DNA of 33,716 nt from Pseudomonadota bacterium (GTDB lineage Bacteria > Desulfobacterota > Syntrophorhabdia > Syntrophorhabdales > Syntrophorhabdaceae), in contig JAPLKA010000056.1 of NCBI GenBank assembly GCA_026388315.1, forward strand, positions 1-33,716. The letters run 5' to 3'. Shown piece after piece: positions 18,195 through 33,225 of this stretch. Numbering within the stretch: position 1 is the stretch's first letter; every line of letters begins with the position of its first letter. The notes beneath the pieces were generated by a model. The model did no database searches and was not told the origin of the DNA. It was given only the letters and a program-made list of their open reading frames with translations. The position numbers and the translations under genes are program-made.

Positions 18195-18745
18195 TCAGAA
18201 TTCATCAAAAAAGATGTTTATCCCGTCCTTTACCTTGTCATAGTAGATAATTTGCACCCCGATGTTTTCCGGTAACATCTGCTTCGATTCATACGTCTGC
18301 GGTTTGATGCTGACAGGATTGTCGCCAATATAACCGTCGATCCCCTTTGCTTCTTCTTCAGGAACGGATATCCTGTAAGATTTTCCCGTATGCGCTGCGA
18401 CACGTTTCAGAATCGCCTCCTGAAATTTCAGGCCGACAAACGTTTTCACGATGACCAGGTCTTTGACCCATGTTTTGATCATTTCTTCATCTATCTTGGT
18501 AATAACCTGTTTGAAGTTATCGATCATCTGCATGATTTTGGTTTTCGCTTTTTCGATCGCTTCGGGGTGGCTGCTCAAATACCACTTTTCCCATTCTTCC
18601 AGCTTCCTGCCCCGGAATTCCTGGATCAATTCACTCATCTGACCGACAACTTCCGGCCTTGTTCCCTGGGCGTTCTGATTTGCAAGATTTATAAGGCGTC
18701 AAGCAATTGCGTGATTTCCTCATTTCTCATCTTGAGTTTCTTCAT
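18195..18745 (-). pseudogene. MjaI-like type II restriction endonuclease, frameshifted near its start
   Basis: The 147-residue open frame from 18638 (MSELIQEFRGRKLEEWEKWY..) matches the MjaI endonuclease family as I know it, with the putative catalytic stretch KGIDGYIGDNPVSIKPQTY. The family N-terminus lies upstream in two frames. ATG at 18743-18745, overlapping the methylase stop as ATGA, gives 18 codons ending LLDAL and then TAA (18689-18691). One frame over, INLANQNAQGTRPEVVGQ reads straight into MSELI. A single-base deletion near 18692 explains this. Whether it is inactive in the cell, or a sequencing error, is unknown. Confidence 0.8.
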
Positions 18746-20037
18746 AGTCGGATTTCCTCTTTCAGGATCGCTTTGAACTTTTCATGATATCTGAATGGGA
18801 AGGTCTCGTCTAATTGGACCAAATGTGAGCGAAGAAAATGAAGATTGATAAAAGTATTATTTTTCAGATATAGATAAGAAAGCAGCCGGCTGTTTTCATC
18901 GTATTTAGCCTGGTCGAATTTCAGGTAAACGTTCTGCCCCTTTAATTTGTCCCAAAGCCACTTCATAGCTTCCGGTTCCTTGCCTGCCTTTGTTCCGATG
19001 CCGATTAACCTGACAATCATGTCATTGTTGAGTTCCATCATGTTGGGAGCGATCACGCGCTTCAAATGTAAATACTGCTCTTTACCGTTTCCGTTGGCTT
19101 CTATTTTTGACCCGAAGGTCATCTTTCTGGGATCGATCTTCTTATCGAATCGGACTGGATCGTGAAATACATAGGGCATTTTTTGTATTTCCTGCCGGTA
19201 ATCGATGGCCGCCCGTGCCGGTTTAAGCACTTCAATAGCGGTCTGACTTAAAATATCGGCCTGCTCAGCCCCGATTTTTTTTCTGATAACCGGTAAAAAG
19301 GACTCATTGATCTCGTATCCGATCGAGCGCCTTTGAAGATGCTTTGCCGTCAGGGAGGTCGTGCCGCTTCCCAGGAAGGGATCAAGAACCGTTTCCCCGA
19401 CAAAGCTGAACATCTTGATCAGCCGCTTGGGAAGCTCTTCGGGAAACATGGCCAGATGCTTATCCTGTTTCTCTCCGGGAAAATTCCAGTGTCCGGCAAA
19501 GTATTCGTTCCATTCTTCTACAGACAACTTGGACTGCTCTTTCACCGCTTTGTTGACTAACGGGGGAATCCCTGGTTTTTTAAAGAGCAGGATAAATTCG
19601 TAATCGATCTTGATAATTCCATTTCGGGGATAGGGGTACGACCCCATAATCGTGGCGCCGCCAGTCGTATTACAGGTCGTCACCTTCTGCCAGATAATGG
19701 CTCCCATATAGTCGAAACCGAAGGATTCACAGAATTTGATGATCTCGGTTCTGATGGGGATAACTTTATAGCGGCCATAATACACAGATCTGGCGAACTG
19801 ATCACCGATATTGATGCACAGGCGGCAACCACCGTGAAGGACACGGTGGCATTCTTTCCACACAAGGTTCAGGTTGTTGATGTATTCTTCGTAGGTATCA
19901 TGAAAGCCGATCTGCCGGACACTGTCGTAATCCTTGAGTTGCCAGTAAGGCGGCGATGTAATGACGAGATGAACGGACTCATCCAGAATTTCCGGCATCG
20001 AACGAGAATCAGCTATAAAAATCTTGTGATTGCTCAT
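18742..20037 (-). CDS. DNA (cytosine-N4)-type methyltransferase with C-terminal SNase-like region
   Basis: 431 residues from the ATG at 20035-20037 (AAGGTAGG site); an in-frame TTG at 20082 would add 15 residues. TSPPYW (27-32) precedes DPFLGSGTT (219-227), the beta-class order, and SPPY suggests N4-cytosine methylation. With the MjaI-like endonuclease downstream, CTAG is a possible target. Residues about 321-425 resemble a staphylococcal-nuclease fold (VRLIGIGTKAGKEPEAM, VYLKFDQAKYDENSRLLSYLYL). The arginine of the SRLL motif is kept, but the usual D and E of the DTPE motif are replaced (GTKA), so this part is probably not catalytic and may bind DNA. Confidence 0.87.
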   Translation of the reverse strand: MSNHKIFIADSRSMPEILDESVHLVITSPPYWQLKDYDSVRQIGFHDTYEEYINNLNLVWKECHRVLHGGCRLCINIGDQFARSVYYGRYKVIPIRTEIIKFCESFGFDYMGAIIWQKVTTCNTTGGATIMGSYPYPRNGIIKIDYEFILLFKKPGIPPLVNKAVKEQSKLSVEEWNEYFAGHWNFPGEKQDKHLAMFPEELPKRLIKMFSFVGETVLDPFLGSGTTSLTAKHLQRRSIGYEINESFLPVIRKKIGAEQADILSQTAIEVLKPARAAIDYRQEIQKMPYVFHDPVRFDKKIDPRKMTFGSKIEANGNGKEQYLHLKRVIAPNMMELNNDMIVRLIGIGTKAGKEPEAMKWLWDKLKGQNVYLKFDQAKYDENSRLLSYLYLKNNTFINLHFLRSHLVQLDETFPFRYHEKFKAILKEEIRL

Positions 20038-20110
20038 GCCTACCTTATACACCATCCGGTTTATCTTTTCAATATCGAACAAAAAAGCAACAATTAAAAG
20101 CCGGCAGCTC

Positions 20111-20265: not shown

Positions 20266-20350
20266 TGCACAGAACAAGGCAGGATAAGGCTTTGCGGGGA
20301 GTTTATATTTTGCTTTCACAGTGAATGTAAAATGGGAAAGGTCCCGCTGG
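20266..20350 (+). repeat. Hairpin element R1, copy D
   Basis: AGAACAAGGCAGGATAAGGC and TTTGCGGGGAGTTT lead to a central hairpin at 20308-20332 (arms TTTTGCTTTCA and TGAATGTAAAA, loop CAG; one mismatch and one wobble pair), then GAAAGGTCCCGC. It sits between the vapC relic and the second RelE-type pair. Confidence 0.75.
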
Positions 20351-20374
20351 ATAAAGAGGCGCAGTAGGGTTTAA

Positions 20375-20629
20375 CTACCTTTTATAAAGCTCCCTTCTGT
20401 GGCCTATTCGCAAAACCACAATATCTTGGCCTTCTATATCGAAAATGATCCTGTAATCCCCGATTCGAAATCTATAACTACCAAGGTTTGAATCGGTAAG
20501 GCTTTCAGCATAATCCAGGGGAGCATCCAGATAACGCATGAGCGTCTTACCAATTCTTTTCTTTACGTCATCATCAAGTTTTTTGATGTCTCTGTGAGCC
20601 CTTTGTGTATATAAAAACCTGTATTTCAC
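20375..20629 (-). CDS. RelE/ParE family toxin, second copy
   Basis: 84 residues. KYRFLYTQRAHRDIKKLDDDV, then GSYRFRIGDYRIIFDIEGQDIVVLRIGHRRELYKR, is the standard RelE/ParE pattern with the C-terminal HRREIY-like motif. It is distinct from the toxin at 17451-17714. The ATGA overlap with the antitoxin stop shows translational coupling. Confidence 0.9.
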   Translation of the reverse strand: MKYRFLYTQRAHRDIKKLDDDVKKRIGKTLMRYLDAPLDYAESLTDSNLGSYRFRIGDYRIIFDIEGQDIVVLRIGHRRELYKR

Positions 20630-20826
20630 TCCCCAAAAACCTCTGTATGTGTTTTAATCCTTCCAGCTTTGTAGTCTATCCTTGCTTCTCTAATGCTTTC
20701 CAAATATTCAGGCGAGGTCGATGCAAGAAGGTCTTCTAAAAAAGCATCCCTTTCTTTTTTTCTCATTGCCTTTATTGCTTTTATCAGTTCTCCCCGATTT
20801 AAATCTATTTTGACAGTATTGAGCAT
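20626..20826 (-). CDS. Antitoxin partner of the second RelE-type toxin
   Basis: 66 residues, helical and charged, with an acidic stretch (EDLLASTSPEYLESIREARIDYKAGRIKTHTEVFGE) that resembles the tail of antitoxins paired with RelE. The N-terminal part (LNTVKIDLNRGELIKAIKAMRKKERDAFLEDL) is not an obvious DNA-binding fold. The call rests mainly on the 4-bp overlap with the toxin. An AAAGGTTTCCAT-like purine run precedes the ATG on the minus strand. Confidence 0.75.
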   Translation of the reverse strand: MLNTVKIDLNRGELIKAIKAMRKKERDAFLEDLLASTSPEYLESIREARIDYKAGRIKTHTEVFGE

Positions 20827-20870
20827 ATGGAAACCTCTCTATTCAAATTTTTCTAAGTATATCATTTTTA

Positions 20871-20955
20871 CGTAAAGGTGAGAATCAAATATGTTCCAAT
20901 GCCTTATAAGGCTTCAGGTCGAGGAACGGATAATCGACAATCGAAGATGTGATCC
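20871..20955 (+). repeat. Dispersed repeat, copy 2
   Basis: Matches 10948-11026 in the same orientation, from CGTAAAGGTGAGAATCAAAT to GAAGATGTGATCCCC. Confidence 0.65.
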
Positions 20956-20981
20956 CCCTTTGCTTTGCATTAAGCGTGATC

Positions 20982-21067
20982 TGGTGCAAAACAAGGCAGG
21001 ATAAGGCTTTCCGGGGAGTTTGCTGTTTGCATGCACTGTGCATGCAAATCATGAAAGGTCTCGCGCA
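20982..21067 (+). repeat. Hairpin element R1, copy E
   Basis: Conserved GCAAAACAAGGCAGGATAAG, GCTTTCCGGGGAGTTT, a central hairpin at 21026-21048 (arm TTTGCATGCA, loop CTG) and GAAAGGTCTCGCGC. The arm sequence again differs from other copies with both sides changed. The next 180 bp (21068-21251) are AT-rich with no supported gene. Confidence 0.8.
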
Positions 21068-21251
21068 TGCATGAGCGATATCGTAATCAATAAAAATTAT
21101 GTTGCATTTATAAAATAACCGTTAGATAATTGAATATACAGTAAAATTTGTACAACTTTGAGGCTTTTTCGACTGCAATAGGACGAAATCCCGCGTTCTT
21201 CGGAAACAGCGGGATGGAAAAGGGGGCGGCACAATTGAAAGGCACGAGACG

Positions 21252-21350
21252 GAGAACCGGCGAAACGGCGTATCGGCGAGCATGGCAATAATGCGTTTCA
21301 AAACTTCTTGGCGGGGGAAAGATATTTATAATTTTATGGATGTCCCTACC
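21252..21350 (+). repeat. R2 border repeat with full leader, copy 5
   Basis: GAACCGGCGAAACGGCGTAT, CGGCGAGCATGGCAATAATG, CGTTTCAAAACTTC, then GGCGGGGGAAAGATATTTAT and GGATGTCCCTACC. It matches 26067-26149 closely and, in parts, 12947-13087. It ends 15 bp before the -35 box of the sce7726-like gene. Confidence 0.8.
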
Positions 21351-21364
21351 CGCCCTTTTTTCCG

Positions 21365-21393
21365 TTGACACCCTTGAGCCTCTTTGATAGCAT
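21365..21393 (+). promoter_or_regulatory. Promoter of the sce7726-like gene
   Basis: TTGACA at 21365-21370, a 17-bp spacer and TAGCAT at 21388-21393. The start codon lies 25 bp further with a GAGAGG ribosome site. Confidence 0.6.
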
Positions 21394-21417
21394 AGAAGTA
21401 GCAATGAGAGGATACGA

Positions 21418-22038
21418 ATGGTACAAAATAATAGGGCAAATACAATGAATGACCCGCAAATACGAAAAGCATTTAAAGCGCAGTTTTTGAAAAGATACAT
21501 AGAAGACAATGACACCTTGGTTATAGATGAGTTTGCATTAGGGCTTGGATCGGCTAGAATCGATATTGGCATAATAAATGGCACTTTAAATGGTTTTGAA
21601 ATAAAAAGTGATAATGACACTCTCAAAAGACTTCAGAATCAGAGAAATGTATATAATTCAATATTTGATTATGTGACCCTTATTGTTGGATACAAACATG
21701 CGTTTAATGCATTCAAAATCATTCCAGAGTGGTGGGGTGTAAAACTATCACACATTGACAAAAAAGGAATTGTTCATATTTCCAACGCTAGAAGTAAGAA
21801 AAAAAATCCTTCAAATGATATATTATCAATAACAAAGCTTCTATGGAGAAATGAGGCCTTAGGTATATTAGAGGAAATTGGTTTTTCAAGTGGGTTTCGA
21901 TCAAAAACACGAGATAGGATTTGTGAACATCTTGTAAAAGTTGCTGATAGAAGATACATTCATCAAAAAGTCTGCGAGAAGCTGAAGCTTAGAGAAAATT
22001 GGAGATCTGATTTACCACGAAACTCAAATGATGATTAA
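21418..22038 (+). CDS. sce7726-family-like protein, predicted PD-(D/E)XK nuclease
   Basis: 206 residues. NDPQIRKAFKAQFLKRY..DTLVIDEF at the start resembles proteins named sce7726. A nuclease-type core is visible: E38, D49 in SARIDIGIING, and E61-I-K63 in NGFEIKS, followed by a Q-containing helix (LKRLQNQRNVYN). That is the D...ExK pattern of the PD-(D/E)XK superfamily; the nuclease activity is my inference. Its 3' end overlaps the beta-like gene on the opposite strand by 50 bp. sce7726 proteins are known to me as partners of sce7725 proteins, which resemble the T4 beta protein, so this is probably a functional pair despite the convergent layout. Confidence 0.78.
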   Translation: MVQNNRANTMNDPQIRKAFKAQFLKRYIEDNDTLVIDEFALGLGSARIDIGIINGTLNGFEIKSDNDTLKRLQNQRNVYNSIFDYVTLIVGYKHAFNAFKIIPEWWGVKLSHIDKKGIVHISNARSKKKNPSNDILSITKLLWRNEALGILEEIGFSSGFRSKTRDRICEHLVKVADRRYIHQKVCEKLKLRENWRSDLPRNSNDD

Positions 22039-23050
22039 TGCCTGCCCTTAACCAAGTCGTGGGACTTCCTGGGTGTATGACCTGCATGCTCATATCTTTT
22101 ATGTATTTATCCCCAAAACAAAAACCCTCTCCACAGAATTCAGACCTATCACATAACAATTCTGCGTTAGCAGGCCATTGGGCATATCCAGGCCCGTCTT
22201 GATTAAATACACCCTCCCCTCTCATAATAATCCAGCAATCGCCTGATGTATATCGTATGCTTGCGCTAAAATTTGACCATGCAGGTGGTTCAGAATAAAT
22301 CGGATGTTGGATAGTATAATCCCCATAACTTGGAAGTCGTAGCCAAGATGGTTTTGATTTTAAAATATTTTTCCAAGTCATCCAATCAAGTCGAGCTAAT
22401 TCGTGTTGTCCCACGCTGAATCCTGAAAGGTCTTTGGAAAATGCGCCACCGATTACTGTAAATGTTCGCCAATCTTGCACATCTGGTATTTCCCTACCAA
22501 TATTTTTAAAGTTCAAATTATTGTCTGTAATATATTGGCAATCAATTATTAAGTCTGAATTCTTTGGGCTCGCACCAATTAGCTCCAATAGATCGTAAAG
22601 TTCGCTGCTGATCTTGTTGCGCCTTAAATCACTCAAAAACAATCGAATACAAACTCCACTTTTGCTTTTTTTTGACAAAACTTTTACAGCGTCTTGGTAT
22701 GCTCGAACCCTGCTCAAGCCGGTTGTCGGTACGTAACTTAATCCCCTTTTATCGGATTCCTCTCCGAACCGACAGAGTATATGCTCGCCCGTAGGGGGCC
22801 TAAAGTTAGGGTCTAAATGCTGCAGATCTATGAAAAATCGTTTTTTTCCCCAAGAATCAAAAATTCCGTCTATCGTTTGAGAAAGCATTAGATCAAAGGT
22901 GGGGGTAGTCTTTTTTTCTTTAAAATTGGAGGGGATCAATTCAATTAGTGGAGTGATTCTATCTTGCGTATTTGATTCCAAGCATTGAAGTGCTTCTCTC
23001 TCAGCCTGTTTCCATCTCAATACAGGAACATAGTGCTTGTGGTTAAACAT
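21989..23050 (-). CDS. T4 beta-protein-family (sce7725-like) protein
   Basis: 353 residues from the ATG at 23048-23050, chosen because GGAGGT, embedded in the last codons of the upstream gene, lies 7 bp before it. The opening YVPVLRWKQAEREALQCL and ITPLIELIP are typical of the beta-protein family (PF14350), which is found in phages and in bacterial defence-like loci without a settled function. Other parts: FFIDLQHLDP, LSYVPTTG and RAGINHHLSFVVNQI. It is the third gene of an operon with HigB and HigA-ImmA, starting 6 bp after the stop of the latter. Its tail overlaps the sce7726-like gene. Confidence 0.83.
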   Translation of the reverse strand: MFNHKHYVPVLRWKQAEREALQCLESNTQDRITPLIELIPSNFKEKKTTPTFDLMLSQTIDGIFDSWGKKRFFIDLQHLDPNFRPPTGEHILCRFGEESDKRGLSYVPTTGLSRVRAYQDAVKVLSKKSKSGVCIRLFLSDLRRNKISSELYDLLELIGASPKNSDLIIDCQYITDNNLNFKNIGREIPDVQDWRTFTVIGGAFSKDLSGFSVGQHELARLDWMTWKNILKSKPSWLRLPSYGDYTIQHPIYSEPPAWSNFSASIRYTSGDCWIIMRGEGVFNQDGPGYAQWPANAELLCDRSEFCGEGFCFGDKYIKDMSMQVIHPGSPTTWLRAGINHHLSFVVNQISNFL

Positions 23051-23055
23051 GCAAG

Positions 23056-24273
23056 TTACCTCCATTTGATTTCTGGAAATAGTACTCTTATTTTACCATG
23101 ACCCACTAAATGGTTTAAAAGGCGATAAGCTTTGAATTCGTAGCGCATTCTTCCTGCTACAATAGCCGGATTGATTCCGAGTTTCTTTGCCAGGTGTTCA
23201 GCTGCCTCTGGCGATCTTAGCCTGCTTGCAGGACTTTTGATCCATTCTTCTGTTGAGATTAGTGCTTCGGTTGCCAAATTATCTGCTTCTTTTTCTTGAA
23301 TATCTCCTTGGTCATCTACCTCCAAATCATCATAGTACTGCTTGACTTCGGAATTCATGTGGTGCGCTATATGAGCTAATTCATGCATTAAGGTAAACCA
23401 AAAATTGTCAATCCTATCATAGCGCAATGTCATACTTATTATGGGATTATCAGAGAATATCATAATTGCCGCACCATCTAGGTACATCTTGGGCAACTGT
23501 GGTTCGATGACAACTGAGATTCCATATTTATTAAGGAGATTTATTGCTCGTTTAGGGCCATCATCAAAAACACTTAATTGGGCAACCTTTTTCATAGTAT
23601 CCAAGTCAAGAGTATGATGTTGGTAGTTGGCAGAAGGTTTTTTATCCACTGCTCTTAATACAGTTTGTGCGGTCCATGCGTATAAGGCATAGTTATCCAT
23701 TTTTCGACCTGAACGCACATGATTTGTTTGACGGTACAAAACTGCTTGCGGTGCAAGCAAGTTATTTTGGATGAGTTTTTGAAAATATTTTTTGAGCAGT
23801 TTTTCTATTTGTTCACTTATGTCAACATTTGTTGTTACAATCCAACCCCTTTTTATCATTTCGTTTATGGGGAAACGATTCCATTCTATTTTATCTTCTT
23901 TCGCTTCAATAATATTCTGGTCTTGGAGCAAACAGCTTGCGGGTATTCCAAGTTTTGTATGGAGGGCTTGTATCATGGACATTGTTAAGGGGCGTTTTCG
24001 ACCGAGAATTTCGGATACTTTACTTCTACTTCCGATATAGGGTATCAGATCGCGCTGGTTTAAATTTAGCTGTTCCATTCTAAATAATATAGCGTCAATA
24101 GGGCTAGGAAGGGTTTTGGGATAAGTTTTATCTTCATAATCTTTTACTAAGAGTGTCAGTAATTCTAAGCGATCTGCCTCTTTAGTGCCGGGAACCGGAT
24201 CAAAATCAATTAACTTTTCAATTTCAACAAGAACGGCGTTATATTCTGATTCGTTTTTGATTATTTTATTCAT
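23056..24273 (-). CDS. HigA-type HTH antitoxin fused to ImmA/IrrE metalloprotease
   Basis: 405 residues. The N-terminal part (about 55-118) is a HigA-like helix-turn-helix (MEQLNLNQRDLIPYIGS, SKVSEILGRKRPLTMSMIQ). The C-terminal part (about 225-370) has the zinc-protease motif HELAH (297-301) followed by HH and a downstream EKEAD (328-332), the ImmA/IrrE pattern. HigA antitoxins are normally about 100-140 residues. Here the antitoxin itself may be cut, or may cut another protein, on a signal. The ATG overlaps the HigB stop (ATGA). Confidence 0.9.
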   Translation of the reverse strand: MNKIIKNESEYNAVLVEIEKLIDFDPVPGTKEADRLELLTLLVKDYEDKTYPKTLPSPIDAILFRMEQLNLNQRDLIPYIGSRSKVSEILGRKRPLTMSMIQALHTKLGIPASCLLQDQNIIEAKEDKIEWNRFPINEMIKRGWIVTTNVDISEQIEKLLKKYFQKLIQNNLLAPQAVLYRQTNHVRSGRKMDNYALYAWTAQTVLRAVDKKPSANYQHHTLDLDTMKKVAQLSVFDDGPKRAINLLNKYGISVVIEPQLPKMYLDGAAIMIFSDNPIISMTLRYDRIDNFWFTLMHELAHIAHHMNSEVKQYYDDLEVDDQGDIQEKEADNLATEALISTEEWIKSPASRLRSPEAAEHLAKKLGINPAIVAGRMRYEFKAYRLLNHLVGHGKIRVLFPEIKWR

Positions 24274-24578
24274 TTTATATTTCCTTTCTTTACCTCAAAA
24301 CTCCATTTTGAATATTCCGCATGTGTTCCAATTCTTTTTATATAGACTACTTGATTTCTATAGCTTATCTTTATATCTAACCTGTACTGATTGCCTTTAA
24401 TATTAAATATAACTCTGTTATCAGCCAAGAAGCTTGCATGTGGGTAACGTTTTTTTATGTCCAAGGAGGTCTCCCATCGAGCTTCTTCAACTTCAGCGCA
24501 AAAGGCATCTATTTGCGATTTGGCATCACCGTATTTTATCTTAAAATCGTCAAGTATTTTCCGTCCAATTAACTCCAT
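24270..24578 (-). CDS. higB: HigB-type mRNA interferase toxin
   Basis: 102 residues from the ATG at 24576-24578; a TTG 15 bp upstream is also in frame. MELIGRKILDDF is the typical HigB opening, followed by a W residue, NRVIFNIKGNQYRLDIKISY and VYIKRIGTHAEYSKW, the HigB family core. It should cut translated mRNA. The gene leads a three-gene operon (HigB, HigA-ImmA, beta-like). A 47-bp perfect inverted repeat lies about 35 bp upstream. Confidence 0.88.
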   Translation of the reverse strand: MELIGRKILDDFKIKYGDAKSQIDAFCAEVEEARWETSLDIKKRYPHASFLADNRVIFNIKGNQYRLDIKISYRNQVVYIKRIGTHAEYSKWSFEVKKGNIK

Positions 24579-24613
24579 TAAATTATCCAACAATTAACTT
24601 AAGTATTTTGAGC

Positions 24614-24660
24614 AAAATAGTATACAATAGTCCCTCCAAGGGACTATTGTATACTATTTT
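24614..24660. promoter_or_regulatory. Perfect 22-bp-arm inverted repeat upstream of higB
   Basis: Arm AAAATAGTATACAATAGTCC continuing CT, centre CCA, then the exact complement. GTATAC, itself a palindrome, occurs in both arms. The location directly upstream of an autoregulated toxin-antitoxin operon fits an operator for the HigA domain. As RNA it would be a long stem with a short U-run on the plus strand, so a bidirectional terminator is the alternative. Confidence 0.65.
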
Positions 24661-24799
24661 AATATATATGCAACACTTATTTTCAAATGAATGATAATTA
24701 TTAATTATAAAGGAAACTATATTTTTGAAACAAACAGCGTGGCATAGGGGGACGGGCGGGACGTTCCTTAAAAATTAAATAACTTTTCTAAATTGTAGT

Positions 24800-24965
24800 G
24801 GCCGAGGATTTTTGATGGTAGCCACCTGAGAACAAAATCTGTACTCAATAGGGTAGTTGGCAGCGCGCAGGTAACCGGCAAAAGCAGAACAGCGTACCTA
24901 TTGGTACATTGAGGATTGAGCAATCCCCGAAGTCGACAAAGTTAGCCGCAAAAAGCACTCCGGCC
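24800..24965. repeat. Palindromic element family R4, degenerate copy
   Basis: Left end GGCCGAGGATTTTTGATGG, right end CGCAAAAAGCACTCCGGCC, imperfectly inverted. Inside, GCGTACCTATTGGTACATTG and CGAAGTCGACAAAGTTAG match the complete copy at 25218-25343. Non-coding. Confidence 0.65.
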
Positions 24966-24974
24966 TGTAAACGT

Positions 24975-25120
24975 AAATTGTGAGAAAATGTTCTGAAACA
25001 TTTTCAGCAACAGTTGCTGAAAATGCTGAAACCTCCCTAAAGCCAATAGAGACAGGAAAATGACTGATTCTCCGAAACATTTGCGGAGAATTTGGAGATA
25101 GCCGAAGTGGGGAACGGGAA
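24975..25120 (+). repeat. Two-hairpin repeat R3, copy F
   Basis: AATTGTGAGAAAATGTTCTG, hairpin 1 at 25001-25023 (core CAGCAACAGTTGCTG), CTGAAACCTCCCTAAAGCC, hairpin 2 at 25068-25090 (core CCGAAACATTTGCGG), then GAATTTGGAGATAGCCGAAG. It recurs at 25924-26060 and in part at 26871-26987 and 27335-27400, always in this orientation. Confidence 0.8.
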
Positions 25121-25217
25121 ACGCCCTTCACATTTTCACTTTTTTCTTGCTAAGGCGATATATAGGGAACGTTCGTAGCTTCCGTAACTTTCTATAGTGA
25201 TTCAAGAACAGTTCTCT

Positions 25218-25343
25218 GGCAGAGGCGATCTTTGATTGATAACGCGAAGACGAGGGGTCGCCGCCCGGAAGCGTACCTATCGGTACGTTGAGGACTGTGC
25301 GGCCCCGAAGCCGACAAAGTTAGACGCAAAAAGCGCCTCTGCC
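25218..25343. repeat. Palindromic element family R4, complete copy
   Basis: 126 bp with terminal inverted repeats GGCAGAGGCGATCTTTG and CAAAAAGCGCCTCTGCC. The centre has GCGTACCTATCGGTACG, itself palindromic. It has landed in, or formed, the 3' end of the hepT-like gene and supplies its last 22 codons and stop. Confidence 0.8.
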
Positions 25344-25474
25344 ATTAGTCGGGGAATCTTGTTCACCACCACATCCATGACATCAACGCCAAAATAATCA
25401 TGGATTAAGGGAGGAGGTATGAACGTTGTTTCATCGAGAATGTGGCGCAGATATTCAAGCGGCGAGGCTGACAT
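25277..25474 (-). pseudogene. Decayed HepT (HEPN/DUF86) toxin gene
   Basis: The frame begins SPLEYLRHILDETTFI, the usual HepT start, and then jumps to LIHDYFGVDVMDVVVNKIPRL, a segment from near the family's C-terminus. About 60 internal residues, including the arginine of the RxxxxH active site, are missing. From about residue 44 the sequence comes from the palindromic element at 25218-25343. The start overlaps the mntA stop by 20 bp, the normal HEPN/MNT layout. The toxin should be inactive. Confidence 0.85.
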
Positions 25475-25772
25475 ATTCGGCTTCTTTCAGAATGTAGGGC
25501 CCGATATAAGGGCTCAAGGACTCTGCGGTAACGAGTTCAATTCTCCGCTGCAATAAAGCCTCCAGTAAAAAAGAGAGGGCCATAAAGTTGTCGAAGGTTT
25601 TCTTGCCCGTTTCGAATTCTACGATAAGATCGATATCGCTGCCACCCTTCTGCTCACCGCGAACGAAGGACCCGAACAGCCCGAGTCGCTTCACCCCCAT
25701 AGCCTGCAATTGGCTCCCATTCTCACGTAGCTTATTCAATACATCTTCACTTGATATAAATGACTTCTTCAA
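25455..25772 (-). CDS. mntA: MntA-type minimal nucleotidyltransferase antitoxin
   Basis: 105 residues. The nucleotidyltransferase motif GSFVRGEQKGGSDIDLIVEF (34-53) is complete; the third acidic position is E in RIELVTAESL, where D is usual. MntA proteins modify and silence HepT. The start is a TTG with an AAAGG site close by, so it is uncertain. The partner toxin is broken, so the gene may be under little selection. Confidence 0.85.
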   Translation of the reverse strand: MKKSFISSEDVLNKLRENGSQLQAMGVKRLGLFGSFVRGEQKGGSDIDLIVEFETGKKTFDNFMALSFLLEALLQRRIELVTAESLSPYIGPYILKEAEYVSLAA

Positions 25773-25923
25773 CCTTTCACCTTCCGGGGCAAGATCGTTA
25801 AGTACCCTTGCCCACTCGATAAAGTAAATATATCAAATTCTACAATATACCACAATGTCTTTTTCAATAACGCTACGGACTCAATTTCGATAAGGGGGAT
25901 AGCCGGAACGTTTTCCGGAACTG

Positions 25924-26060
25924 CAAATTGTGAGAAAATCTTCTGAAACATTTTCAGAAACTGTTTCTGAAAATACTAAAACCTCCCTAAGGCCAATACA
26001 GGCAAGGAAACTACTGATTCTCCGCAACAGTTGCGGAGAATTTGAGATAGCCGAAGGGGG
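25924..26060 (+). repeat. Two-hairpin repeat R3, copy G
   Basis: Hairpin 1 at 25951-25973 (core CAGAAACTGTTTCTG), hairpin 2 at 26018-26040 (core CCGCAACAGTTGCGG), with the same flanks and spacer as copy F. The core bases of hairpin 1 differ from copy F on both arms. Confidence 0.8.
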
Positions 26061-26066
26061 GGGACG

Positions 26067-26149
26067 GGGAATCGGCGAGTGTGGCAATAATGCGTTTCAA
26101 AACTTCATGGCGGGGGAAAATATTTATAATTTTACAGATATTCCTACCC
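26067..26149 (+). repeat. R2 border repeat with leader, copy 6
   Basis: GGGGAATCGGCGAGTGTGGC, AATAATGCGTTTCAAAACTT, GGCGGGGGAAAATATTTATA, ending in TTCCTACCCC. Closely matches 21265-21350. It precedes the promoter of the second brnTA pair. Confidence 0.8.
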
Positions 26150-26192
26150 CACTACCCTATCCTACCACCTAACAGCTACACTGTTCAATTTC

Positions 26193-26220
26193 TTGTAAAA
26201 ACGTAAAAATAAGGTATAAT
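26193..26220 (+). promoter_or_regulatory. Promoter of the second brnTA operon
   Basis: TTGTAA at 26193-26198, 16-bp spacer, TATAAT at 26215-26220. The predicted transcription start falls on or next to the GTG start codon at 26227, so the mRNA would be leaderless. Confidence 0.6.
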
Positions 26221-26226
26221 AGATAA

Positions 26227-26478
26227 GTGGTTAATTGGAATCGATTCCATCCGCAGGATTTTGAGTACGATTTTGAGCGTGACAAGCTCAGTGATCACAA
26301 TATTACTTTCGAAGAAGCGGTTGAATGCTTTTTCTCAGACTTTGAGGTTAGGCGTAACAAATCATATAAAGACAGGTACCAGCTCATAGGTTGCACGATT
26401 GGAGGACAAAGGATTAAGGTTATCTTTCAGCTAAAACCCGGCAATATTGCCCGGATTATCACAGGGTGGAAATTATGA
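26227..26478 (+). CDS. BrnT-like toxin, second copy
   Basis: 83 residues beginning with GTG. FEYDFERDKLSDHNITFEEAVECF follows the BrnT pattern, although the usual KH of NxxKHG is DH here. Then DRYQLIGCTIGGQRIKVIFQ and ARIITGWKL. It is unlike the copy at 13335-13607 outside the family motifs. There is no ribosome site before the GTG. The stop overlaps the antitoxin start as ATGA. Confidence 0.8.
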   Translation: MVNWNRFHPQDFEYDFERDKLSDHNITFEEAVECFFSDFEVRRNKSYKDRYQLIGCTIGGQRIKVIFQLKPGNIARIITGWKL

Positions 26479-26762
26479 AAACAAAGAATAAAAATCTTAC
26501 CGAACAGGAAATCGATCAGATAATTATAGCAGATGCAGATAATAATTCCGCTTGGGAGGAGCCAATAAAGATTCGTAAACAAAAATTCACATCTTTATCT
26601 ATCCCTTCCGAGCTTGCGTCACGTGCAGCATTTTTTGCTCGCCTCCATCGCGGACTCAGTTTAGAAGAATGGCTCAATCGAGTCATTCAGGAAAGGTTGG
26701 ATATAGAAGAAGCTGCCTTTTCTGGATTCAAACGTGAACTGGCAGCAAAGAACGGTCGATAA
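26475..26762 (+). CDS. BrnA/CopG-like antitoxin, second copy
   Basis: 95 residues from the ATG at 26475, overlapping the toxin stop. An in-frame GTG 9 bp upstream is possible. A basic N-terminus and acidic middle lead to LSIPSELASRAAFFARLHRGLSLEEWLNRVIQERL, a ribbon-helix-helix-like C-terminal part. It pairs with the BrnT-like toxin by operon layout. Confidence 0.78.
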   Translation: MKTKNKNLTEQEIDQIIIADADNNSAWEEPIKIRKQKFTSLSIPSELASRAAFFARLHRGLSLEEWLNRVIQERLDIEEAAFSGFKRELAAKNGR

Positions 26763-26772
26763 CAAGGTCATA

Positions 26773-26796
26773 TAGGGTCAGGTCTTGAATTATCAG
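26773..26796 (+). other. Transposon-end-like motif
   Basis: TAGGGTCAGGTCTTGAATTA resembles a motif I associate with RAYT/IS200-like transposase genes and their ends. No transposase gene is present here, so this is at most a relic. Confidence 0.35.
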
Positions 26797-26870
26797 TTTT
26801 TTATACAATTTCGCCGGCATACATTAAAACAAGCAGGAACCCCCCACACATAGTCTTTGATAGTAAAATT

Positions 26871-26987
26871 GTGAAATGATTTCTGAAACATTTTCAGAAA
26901 CTGTTACTGGAAATGCAGAAGCCGGAGCAAAAAGTCTGTGCCGGGTGATGGACGTAATGAAGCAAGTTTCTGCAACAGTTGCAGAAA
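26871..26987 (+). repeat. Two-hairpin repeat R3, altered copy H
   Basis: Hairpin 1 at 26891-26913 (core CAGAAACTGTTACTG, arms now imperfect) follows TTCTGAAACATTTTC. The second hairpin at 26967-26987 has core CTGCAACAGTTGCAG. The spacer differs from other copies. Confidence 0.7.
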
Positions 26988-27149
26988 ACTCTTTAACCCA
27001 AATATGTCGTTAGGAAGGTGTCGGGGTAGTTGCTCGTGGACTGACCTCGCAATTAAACCGCCCCGGAGCAAACCGTCGAGAGGCGAGGAAGCTTGGTCTT
27101 TTGCATAAGCAAAAGTTCCAAAGCCGAACGCGAGCATATGTCCTAGCCC

Positions 27150-27202
27150 GCACAGCGGGCGAGAGGGGGAGGCTCCACGAGCTTTGCTTGTGGAGGGGGC
27201 GA
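27150..27202 (+). repeat. GC-rich palindromic element, copy 2
   Basis: Matches 8352-8400 around GGGGGAGGCTCC and GTGGAGGGGGCGAC. Just outside, an imperfect direct repeat (AATTAAACCGCCCCGGAGC near 27050 and AATTGAAGCCGCCGGAGC near 27218) brackets about 170 bp that may be one inserted unit. The rest of 26988-27334 has no supported gene. Confidence 0.6.
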
Positions 27203-27334
27203 CGCGAGCCTCGGTAATTGAAGCCGCCGGAGCGGAATGAGCGTGTTTGAGAGGGATGGTCCGACACCCATATGATTCTAATGATAAATCCGGGTTTAAT
27301 CCTTGTAAACCTAAGCCAGTCCTTGTTTTGCTGA

Positions 27335-27400
27335 TTCTCCGCAACAGTTGCGGAGAATTTGGAGATAGCCGAAGTGGGGGACAGGAGACACCTTTCACAT
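27335..27400 (+). repeat. Two-hairpin repeat R3, right half, copy I
   Basis: Hairpin at 27335-27357 (core CCGCAACAGTTGCGG) followed by GAATTTGGAGATAGCCGAAG, as in copies F and G, without the left hairpin. Confidence 0.75.
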
Positions 27401-27609
27401 TTTTCTCTTGGCCTTTGGTCGAGATGATTTTTAATGTATGACGCAACGGTAGAGATAGGCGCAACTGTCAGTTTGTTCTCCATCGGTAAAAAATTAGTTG
27501 CGTTTATATAAAGTTTGAAGAAAAATGGGGAAAAACAGTGTTGAGTTTTAAGTTTTGAGTGTTGAGTTAAAACAAGGAAAAAGTGGCGGCATTGTGGGAA
27601 GAATTTCTT

Positions 27610-27653
27610 TTTGGCGGGGGAAAGATATTTATAATTTTATGGATGTCCCTACC
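27610..27653 (+). repeat. R2 border repeat, copy 7
   Basis: TTTTGGCGGGGGAAAGATAT, TTATAATTTTATGGATGTCC, CTACC. It is nearly identical to 21309-21350 and ends 8 bp before the stop codon of the PASTA gene, so it marks the right border of the accessory region. Confidence 0.8.

Positions 27654-30283: not shown

Positions 30284-33225
<2,942 letters not shown>

What the first reader, a model, noticed from the sequence alone, without database searches (positions are those of the whole stretch)
21418..24660. Four-gene cluster: HigB toxin, HigA-metalloprotease fusion, T4-beta-like protein and a convergent PD-(D/E)XK-like gene
Seen: on the minus strand, higB, a 405-residue HigA with an HELAH protease domain, and a beta-protein-family gene form a tight operon (ATGA overlap, then a ribosome site for the third gene embedded in the second). 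On the plus strand an sce7726-like gene with D49...E61-x-K63 overlaps the beta gene tail by 50 bp. Known: HigA normally lacks a protease; ImmA/IrrE proteases inactivate repressors on a damage signal; sce7726 and beta/sce7725-type genes occur as partners. Inference: the protease could release HigB or activate the nuclease upon phage or DNA damage, with the beta-like protein as sensor or regulator, giving a multi-layer abortive-infection module that I do not know as a described system.
Basis: partly seen in the sequence, partly recalled or inferred. Interest (0 to 1): 0.85.

Follow-up and report, generated by a model that had tools for sequence, protein, structure and literature searches.

The report
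Four-gene phage-defence-type toxin cluster
The cluster joins the parts of two already tested E. coli anti-phage systems (PD-lambda-2 and gop-beta-cII) into one recurring four-gene unit, and its relatives show that the same two "core" genes are paired with several different toxins across many bacterial phyla.

Summary
Three of the four genes (HigB, HigA-ImmA protease fusion, beta) match every part of PD-lambda-2, a tested E. coli anti-phage system (PMC9519451). The fourth, sce7726, is the family of satellite phage P4's cII, which with gop and beta forms another tested system (PMC9122126). The four genes together recur: 16 of the 80 closest HigA-ImmA loci carry all four, from many phyla. Beta and sce7726 lie tail to tail and overlap in nearly all close relatives; most overlaps share one reading phase. 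In a wider beta sample sce7726 sits beside beta in 14 of 18 loci, while the upstream toxin changes: HigB, nucleotidyltransferase, GNAT, or membrane protein. E. coli PD-lambda-2 lacks sce7726, and its HigB lacks the C-terminal motif kept here. Predicted structures: sce7726 has a PD-(D/E)XK nuclease fold, beta a TIM barrel. A conserved palindrome, TTCCC-N5-GGGAA, lies upstream of higB, probably HigA's operator. Best reading: an abortive-infection locus in which HigA-ImmA holds back HigB and beta/sce7726 is a shared sensor/nuclease core. Anatomy is shown; function is inferred. New variant of a known kind.

The parts
21418..22038 (+). sce7726 / P4-cII family protein, predicted PD-(D/E)XK nuclease (E38, D49, E61-x-K63, Q75)
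   Evidence: NF033832 158 bits over cut-off 70; PADLOC cll 2e-22; model pLDDT 91 with core helix-strand-strand-strand-helix-strand; structural neighbours are PD-(D/E)XK enzymes
21989..22038 (.). 50-bp tail-to-tail overlap of sce7726 and beta (phase 2 mod 3)
   Evidence: coordinates; same phase in 31 of 34 relatedness clusters
21989..23050 (-). beta family protein (PD-Lambda-2_C), predicted TIM barrel
   Evidence: PF14350 2.7e-63; PD-Lambda-2_C 1.3e-47; model pLDDT 91, pTM 0.92; TIM-barrel neighbours Z up to 12.8
23056..24273 (-). HigA-type HTH fused to ImmA/IrrE metalloprotease domain (PD-Lambda-2_B)
   Evidence: PD-Lambda-2_B 1e-148; Peptidase_M78 3.3e-6; HExxH in all 81 proteins checked
24270..24578 (-). 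HigB-type mRNA-interferase-like toxin (PD-Lambda-2_A), ATG start; open frame runs to 24593 from a TTG
   Evidence: PF09907 2e-26; aligns to E. coli HigB 5ifg through the TH-x-EY end
24614..24660 (.). perfect 22-nt inverted repeat with CCC-N5-GGG centre, 36 bp upstream of the higB ATG; predicted HigA operator
   Evidence: same spacing as the TTCCC-N5-GGGAA site of 40 of 79 relatives; CCC-N5-GGG in the window

Best explanation
It is an abortive-infection type anti-phage locus: a full-length relative of PD-lambda-2 that keeps the cII/sce7726 nuclease gene. HigB (an mRNA-cleaving toxin) is made together with HigA-ImmA, which binds it and represses the operon through the palindrome upstream of higB. 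Beta, a TIM-barrel protein with a conserved pocket, senses or relays an infection signal. That triggers the ImmA protease domain, which cuts or remodels the complex, relieves repression and frees the toxin. Sce7726, made from the facing strand, is a PD-(D/E)XK nuclease that acts with beta as a second effector on nucleic acid. Shown: gene identities, folds by prediction, recurrent linkage, conserved motifs, conserved palindrome. Inferred: toxicity, inhibition, triggering, order of events.
For: Every part matches a PD-lambda-2 or gop-beta-cII component, and both systems block phage in E. coli; beta was dispensable for neutralisation but needed for defence, which fits a sensor or relay. HigB keeps the canonical C-terminus. 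HExxH is present in all 81 HigA-ImmA proteins. TTCCC-N5-GGGAA upstream of higB in 40 of 79 loci against 8 of 3284 control windows. Nuclease motif invariant and fold. Beta conserved residues D80, D175, R225, D249, Y250 lie at strand ends of the barrel. Beta and sce7726 are linked in 14 of 18 family-sampled loci. Neighbourhood is rich in toxin-antitoxin and methylase genes.
Against: In E. coli PD-lambda-2 the HigA-ImmA component, not HigB, was toxic when over-produced. Most HigB/HigA-ImmA pairs (41 of 62 with enough flank) have no beta, so they work without it. Beta plus sce7726 also occur with no toxin operon attached, so the two halves may be separate functions that sit together. No expression, toxicity or phage data exist for this organism.
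Confidence: 0.5

Rival explanations
1. Two independent neighbours: a HigB/HigA-ImmA toxin-antitoxin pair that maintains the region, and a separate beta/sce7726 defence pair that merely lies beside it.
For: Each half occurs alone: 41 of 62 HigA-ImmA loci lack beta, and beta/sce7726 without toxin genes is common in phages and plasmids.
Against: Beta is in one operon with higA here, with its ribosome site inside higA; beta proteins with HigB operons and sce7726 form one supported clade of 21 rows; an ImmA-type gene precedes beta in 12 of 18 family-sampled loci.
Confidence: 0.2
2. Roles as in E. coli PD-lambda-2: the HigA-ImmA protease is the toxin, HigB is its inhibitor, beta the activator.
For: Direct E. 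coli result.
Against: The E. coli and Pseudomonas HigBs have lost the conserved TH-x-EY end that this HigB and the two-gene HigBs keep, and they belong to a separate beta clade.
Confidence: 0.2
3. sce7726 is not an effector but a processing or sensing nuclease for beta, and the tail overlap serves antisense control between the two genes.
For: The overlap and its phase are conserved over 31 of 34 clusters; beta/sce7726 is the most constant pair.
Against: Phase varies in distant relatives (9 of 14 in the family sample) and P4 has a gap instead; no RNA evidence.
Confidence: 0.1

Closest known systems
PD-lambda-2 (E. coli, Vassallo et al. 2022)
   Same: HigB-like, HigA-peptidase fusion and beta protein in the same order and orientation; all three match its PADLOC models
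   Different: Four E. coli loci inspected have no sce7726; their HigB lacks the TH-x-EY end; separate beta clade
gop-beta-cII of satellite phage P4
   Same: beta followed by a convergent sce7726-family gene (cII)
   Different: Toxin is gop, a small membrane/coiled-coil-like protein with no ImmA gene; a 27-bp gap instead of an overlap
HigBA of E. coli K-12 (5ifg)
   Same: HigB homology over its length; HigA N-terminal half
   Different: Its HigA has no ImmA domain, and no beta or sce7726 are attached
CapH-CapP / RmrA type ImmA regulators
   Same: ImmA/IrrE protease with HTH repressor logic (weak matches)
   Different: Here both are one polypeptide that is also the antitoxin of a toxin pair

Membership tests
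PD-lambda-2 | HigB-like component A | tested here: met
   PDLC03981 1.6e-40
PD-lambda-2 | HigA-peptidase fusion component B | tested here: met
   PDLC03982 1e-148
PD-lambda-2 | beta protein component C, third gene of the operon | tested here: met
   PDLC03983 1.3e-47; operon order
PD-lambda-2 | protects against phage lambda; component B toxic, A neutralises | not testable with these tools
   needs experiment; reported for E. coli
gop-beta-cII | gop toxin gene upstream of beta | tested here: not met
   higB and higA-immA stand there instead; the gop model does not match any of the five window proteins scanned
gop-beta-cII | cII-family gene convergent to beta | tested here: met
   NF033832 and PADLOC cll matches, convergent
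PD-(D/E)XK nuclease | alpha-beta-beta-beta-alpha-beta core with D and E-x-K on the central strands | tested here: met
PD-(D/E)XK nuclease | metal-dependent cleavage | not testable with these tools
   needs assay
ImmA/IrrE metalloprotease | HExxH motif in Peptidase_M78 domain | tested here: met
HigB toxin PF09907 | above gathering score and canonical C-terminal end | tested here: met
   92.4 bits vs 27; TH-x-EY aligned to 5ifg

The most novel reading that the evidence does not exclude
Beta plus sce7726 form a portable sensor/nuclease core of one large defence family that unites PD-lambda-2 and gop-beta-cII and that swaps its toxin (HigB, DUF6932 nucleotidyltransferase, GNAT, membrane proteins, gop), usually through an ImmA protease; the pair is locked together by an ancient antisense overlap of fixed phase.
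Probability: 0.45. Interest if true: 0.72.

Novelty: new variant of a known kind. Interest (0 to 1): 0.55.

Why it matters
If true, two E. coli systems that were reported separately are truncated or altered versions of one modular family, and the untested constant part (beta and sce7726) rather than the toxin would be what recognises the phage. It gives a clear prediction: toxins can be exchanged between members while specificity follows beta/sce7726. It also offers a rare case of an antisense gene overlap kept in one phase across phyla.

Tried and rejected
Genome-contig search with the six-row sce7726 alignment failed for lack of a conserved stretch. Early HigB seeds for Agrobacterium and Sinorhizobium were found to be nucleotidyltransferases, not HigB, and were separated. 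PDB sequence search gave no relative for sce7726 or beta. Only four papers in the library mention sce7726, found by word search and not read. A careful beta tree did not finish; the quick one was used.

Full report
Observation. HigB, HigA-ImmA and beta form a tight minus-strand operon: a 4-bp ATGA overlap, then a GGAGG inside the end of higA that serves an ATG at 23050 for beta. The plus-strand sce7726 gene overlaps the beta tail by 50 bp. All four family assignments are strong.

What is already known. PADLOC models of PD-lambda-2 match all three minus-strand proteins (1.6e-40, 1e-148, 1.3e-47). PD-lambda-2 was found by functional selection in E. coli: HigB-like A, HigA-peptidase B, and C related to a P4 antitoxin; over-produced B was toxic, A rescued, and C was needed for defence against lambda-vir but not for neutralisation (PMC9519451). 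Sce7726 is the family of P4 cII; gop-beta-cII protects against lambda and P1 (PMC9122126), and P4 itself has gop-beta followed by a convergent cII.

Does the four-gene set recur? Of the 80 closest HigA-ImmA loci in genome contigs, 16 carry higB, higA-immA, beta and convergent sce7726; among the 62 with enough downstream sequence the split is 13 four-gene, 8 three-gene, 41 without beta. The four-gene loci come from Acidobacteria, Stahlbacteria, Planctomycetota, Omnitrophota, Dehalococcoidia and several candidate-phyla-radiation groups. This sample favours close relatives of the window. A sample chosen only by the beta family (PF14350; 981 genomes of three phyla) gave 18 loci outside the seed genomes (one cut off by its contig end): 14 with sce7726 next to beta, 12 with an ImmA-type gene upstream, 2 with the full HigB version. 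For comparison only 5 of 297 genomes of the window's phylum have any sce7726 gene, so the adjacency is not chance. In plasmids about 17 of 22 beta records, and in phages all 6, have the pair.

Exchangeable toxins. Upstream of beta stand HigB (window), a DUF6932 nucleotidyltransferase with HTH-ImmA (Agrobacterium L004, Sinorhizobium L007, L223), a GNAT-like protein with an HTH-less ImmA (L107, L229; L108, L109 and L237 by similarity to these), and membrane proteins with a small CapP-like ImmA (L225, L226, L227, L231, L233). P4 beta falls with the membrane-protein group in the quick tree (SH-aLRT 95), and P4 gop itself has hydrophobic stretches. E. coli loci carrying PD-lambda-2 have no sce7726 and their betas form a separate clade with those of Pseudomonas, Thiobacillus and others (98). 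The window's beta lies in a clade of 19 four-gene and 2 three-gene members (99).

The overlap. In 34 clusters at 60% sce7726 identity, 31 have overlaps that are 2 modulo 3, with many different lengths (11 to 140 bp); P4 has a gap. In the family sample 9 of 14 share the phase. The likeliest reason is one ancient overlap whose stop codons have since moved; whether it has a function is open. I did not measure how common such overlaps are among other convergent genes.

Structures. Sce7726 is predicted at pLDDT 91 with the PD-(D/E)XK core; E38, D49, E61, K63 and Q75 are invariant in 23 rows. Best aligned chains are 3dnx (Z 9.7, rmsd 4.8, 139 residues), then NucS/EndoMS, PaqCI, Can2 and other enzymes of this fold at Z 6-8; Foldseek alone gave no E below 0.001. 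Beta is predicted at pLDDT 91, pTM 0.92, as a TIM barrel (MTHFR 7xlf Z 12.8, rmsd 3.7, 233 residues; tryptophan synthase alpha and aldolases close behind). Its conserved residues D80, P113, R141, D175, D249 sit in or at the ends of strands, which suggests a ligand pocket. Fold does not show function.

Regulation. Upstream of higB the palindrome TTCCC-N5-GGGAA occurs in 40 of 79 loci, always with a 5-nt spacer, against 8 of 3284 control windows. The window has CCC-N5-GGG inside a perfect 22-nt inverted repeat. The simplest reading is the operator of the HigA domain, as in other HigBA loci.

Mechanism. I favour HigB as the toxin here because it keeps the TH-x-EY end found in K-12 HigB and in two-gene HigBs, which E. 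coli PD-lambda-2 HigBs lack; that this end is catalytic is my inference. The protease motif is intact in all 81 proteins checked. Beta as sensor or relay rests on the E. coli deletion result and the pocket. Sce7726 as nuclease effector rests on fold, motif and linkage only.

Noticed in passing
window 30869-30962: Exact tandem duplication of 47 bp inside the 23S rRNA gene; possibly an assembly artefact.
   Followed up: no
window 20270-27653, between genes: Several families of dispersed intergenic repeats flank the cluster, e.g. 21304-21350 and 27607-27653 at 98% identity.
   Followed up: partly
window 18742-20082 (-): DNA methylase with a C-terminal thermonuclease-like stretch, next to the cluster.
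   Followed up: no
window 20375-20826 (-): ParE-like toxin with a small upstream partner, a second toxin-antitoxin pair.
   Followed up: no
window 25277-25772 (-): MntA-like nucleotidyltransferase followed by a short ORF that looks like a truncated HEPN partner.
   Followed up: no
L008 4684-6910: A Paraburkholderia plasmid has higB and higA-immA followed by DUF6527 instead of beta.
   Followed up: no
L228: A SIR2-like ORF precedes an HTH-ImmA gene and beta without sce7726, a possible further toxin type.
   Followed up: no
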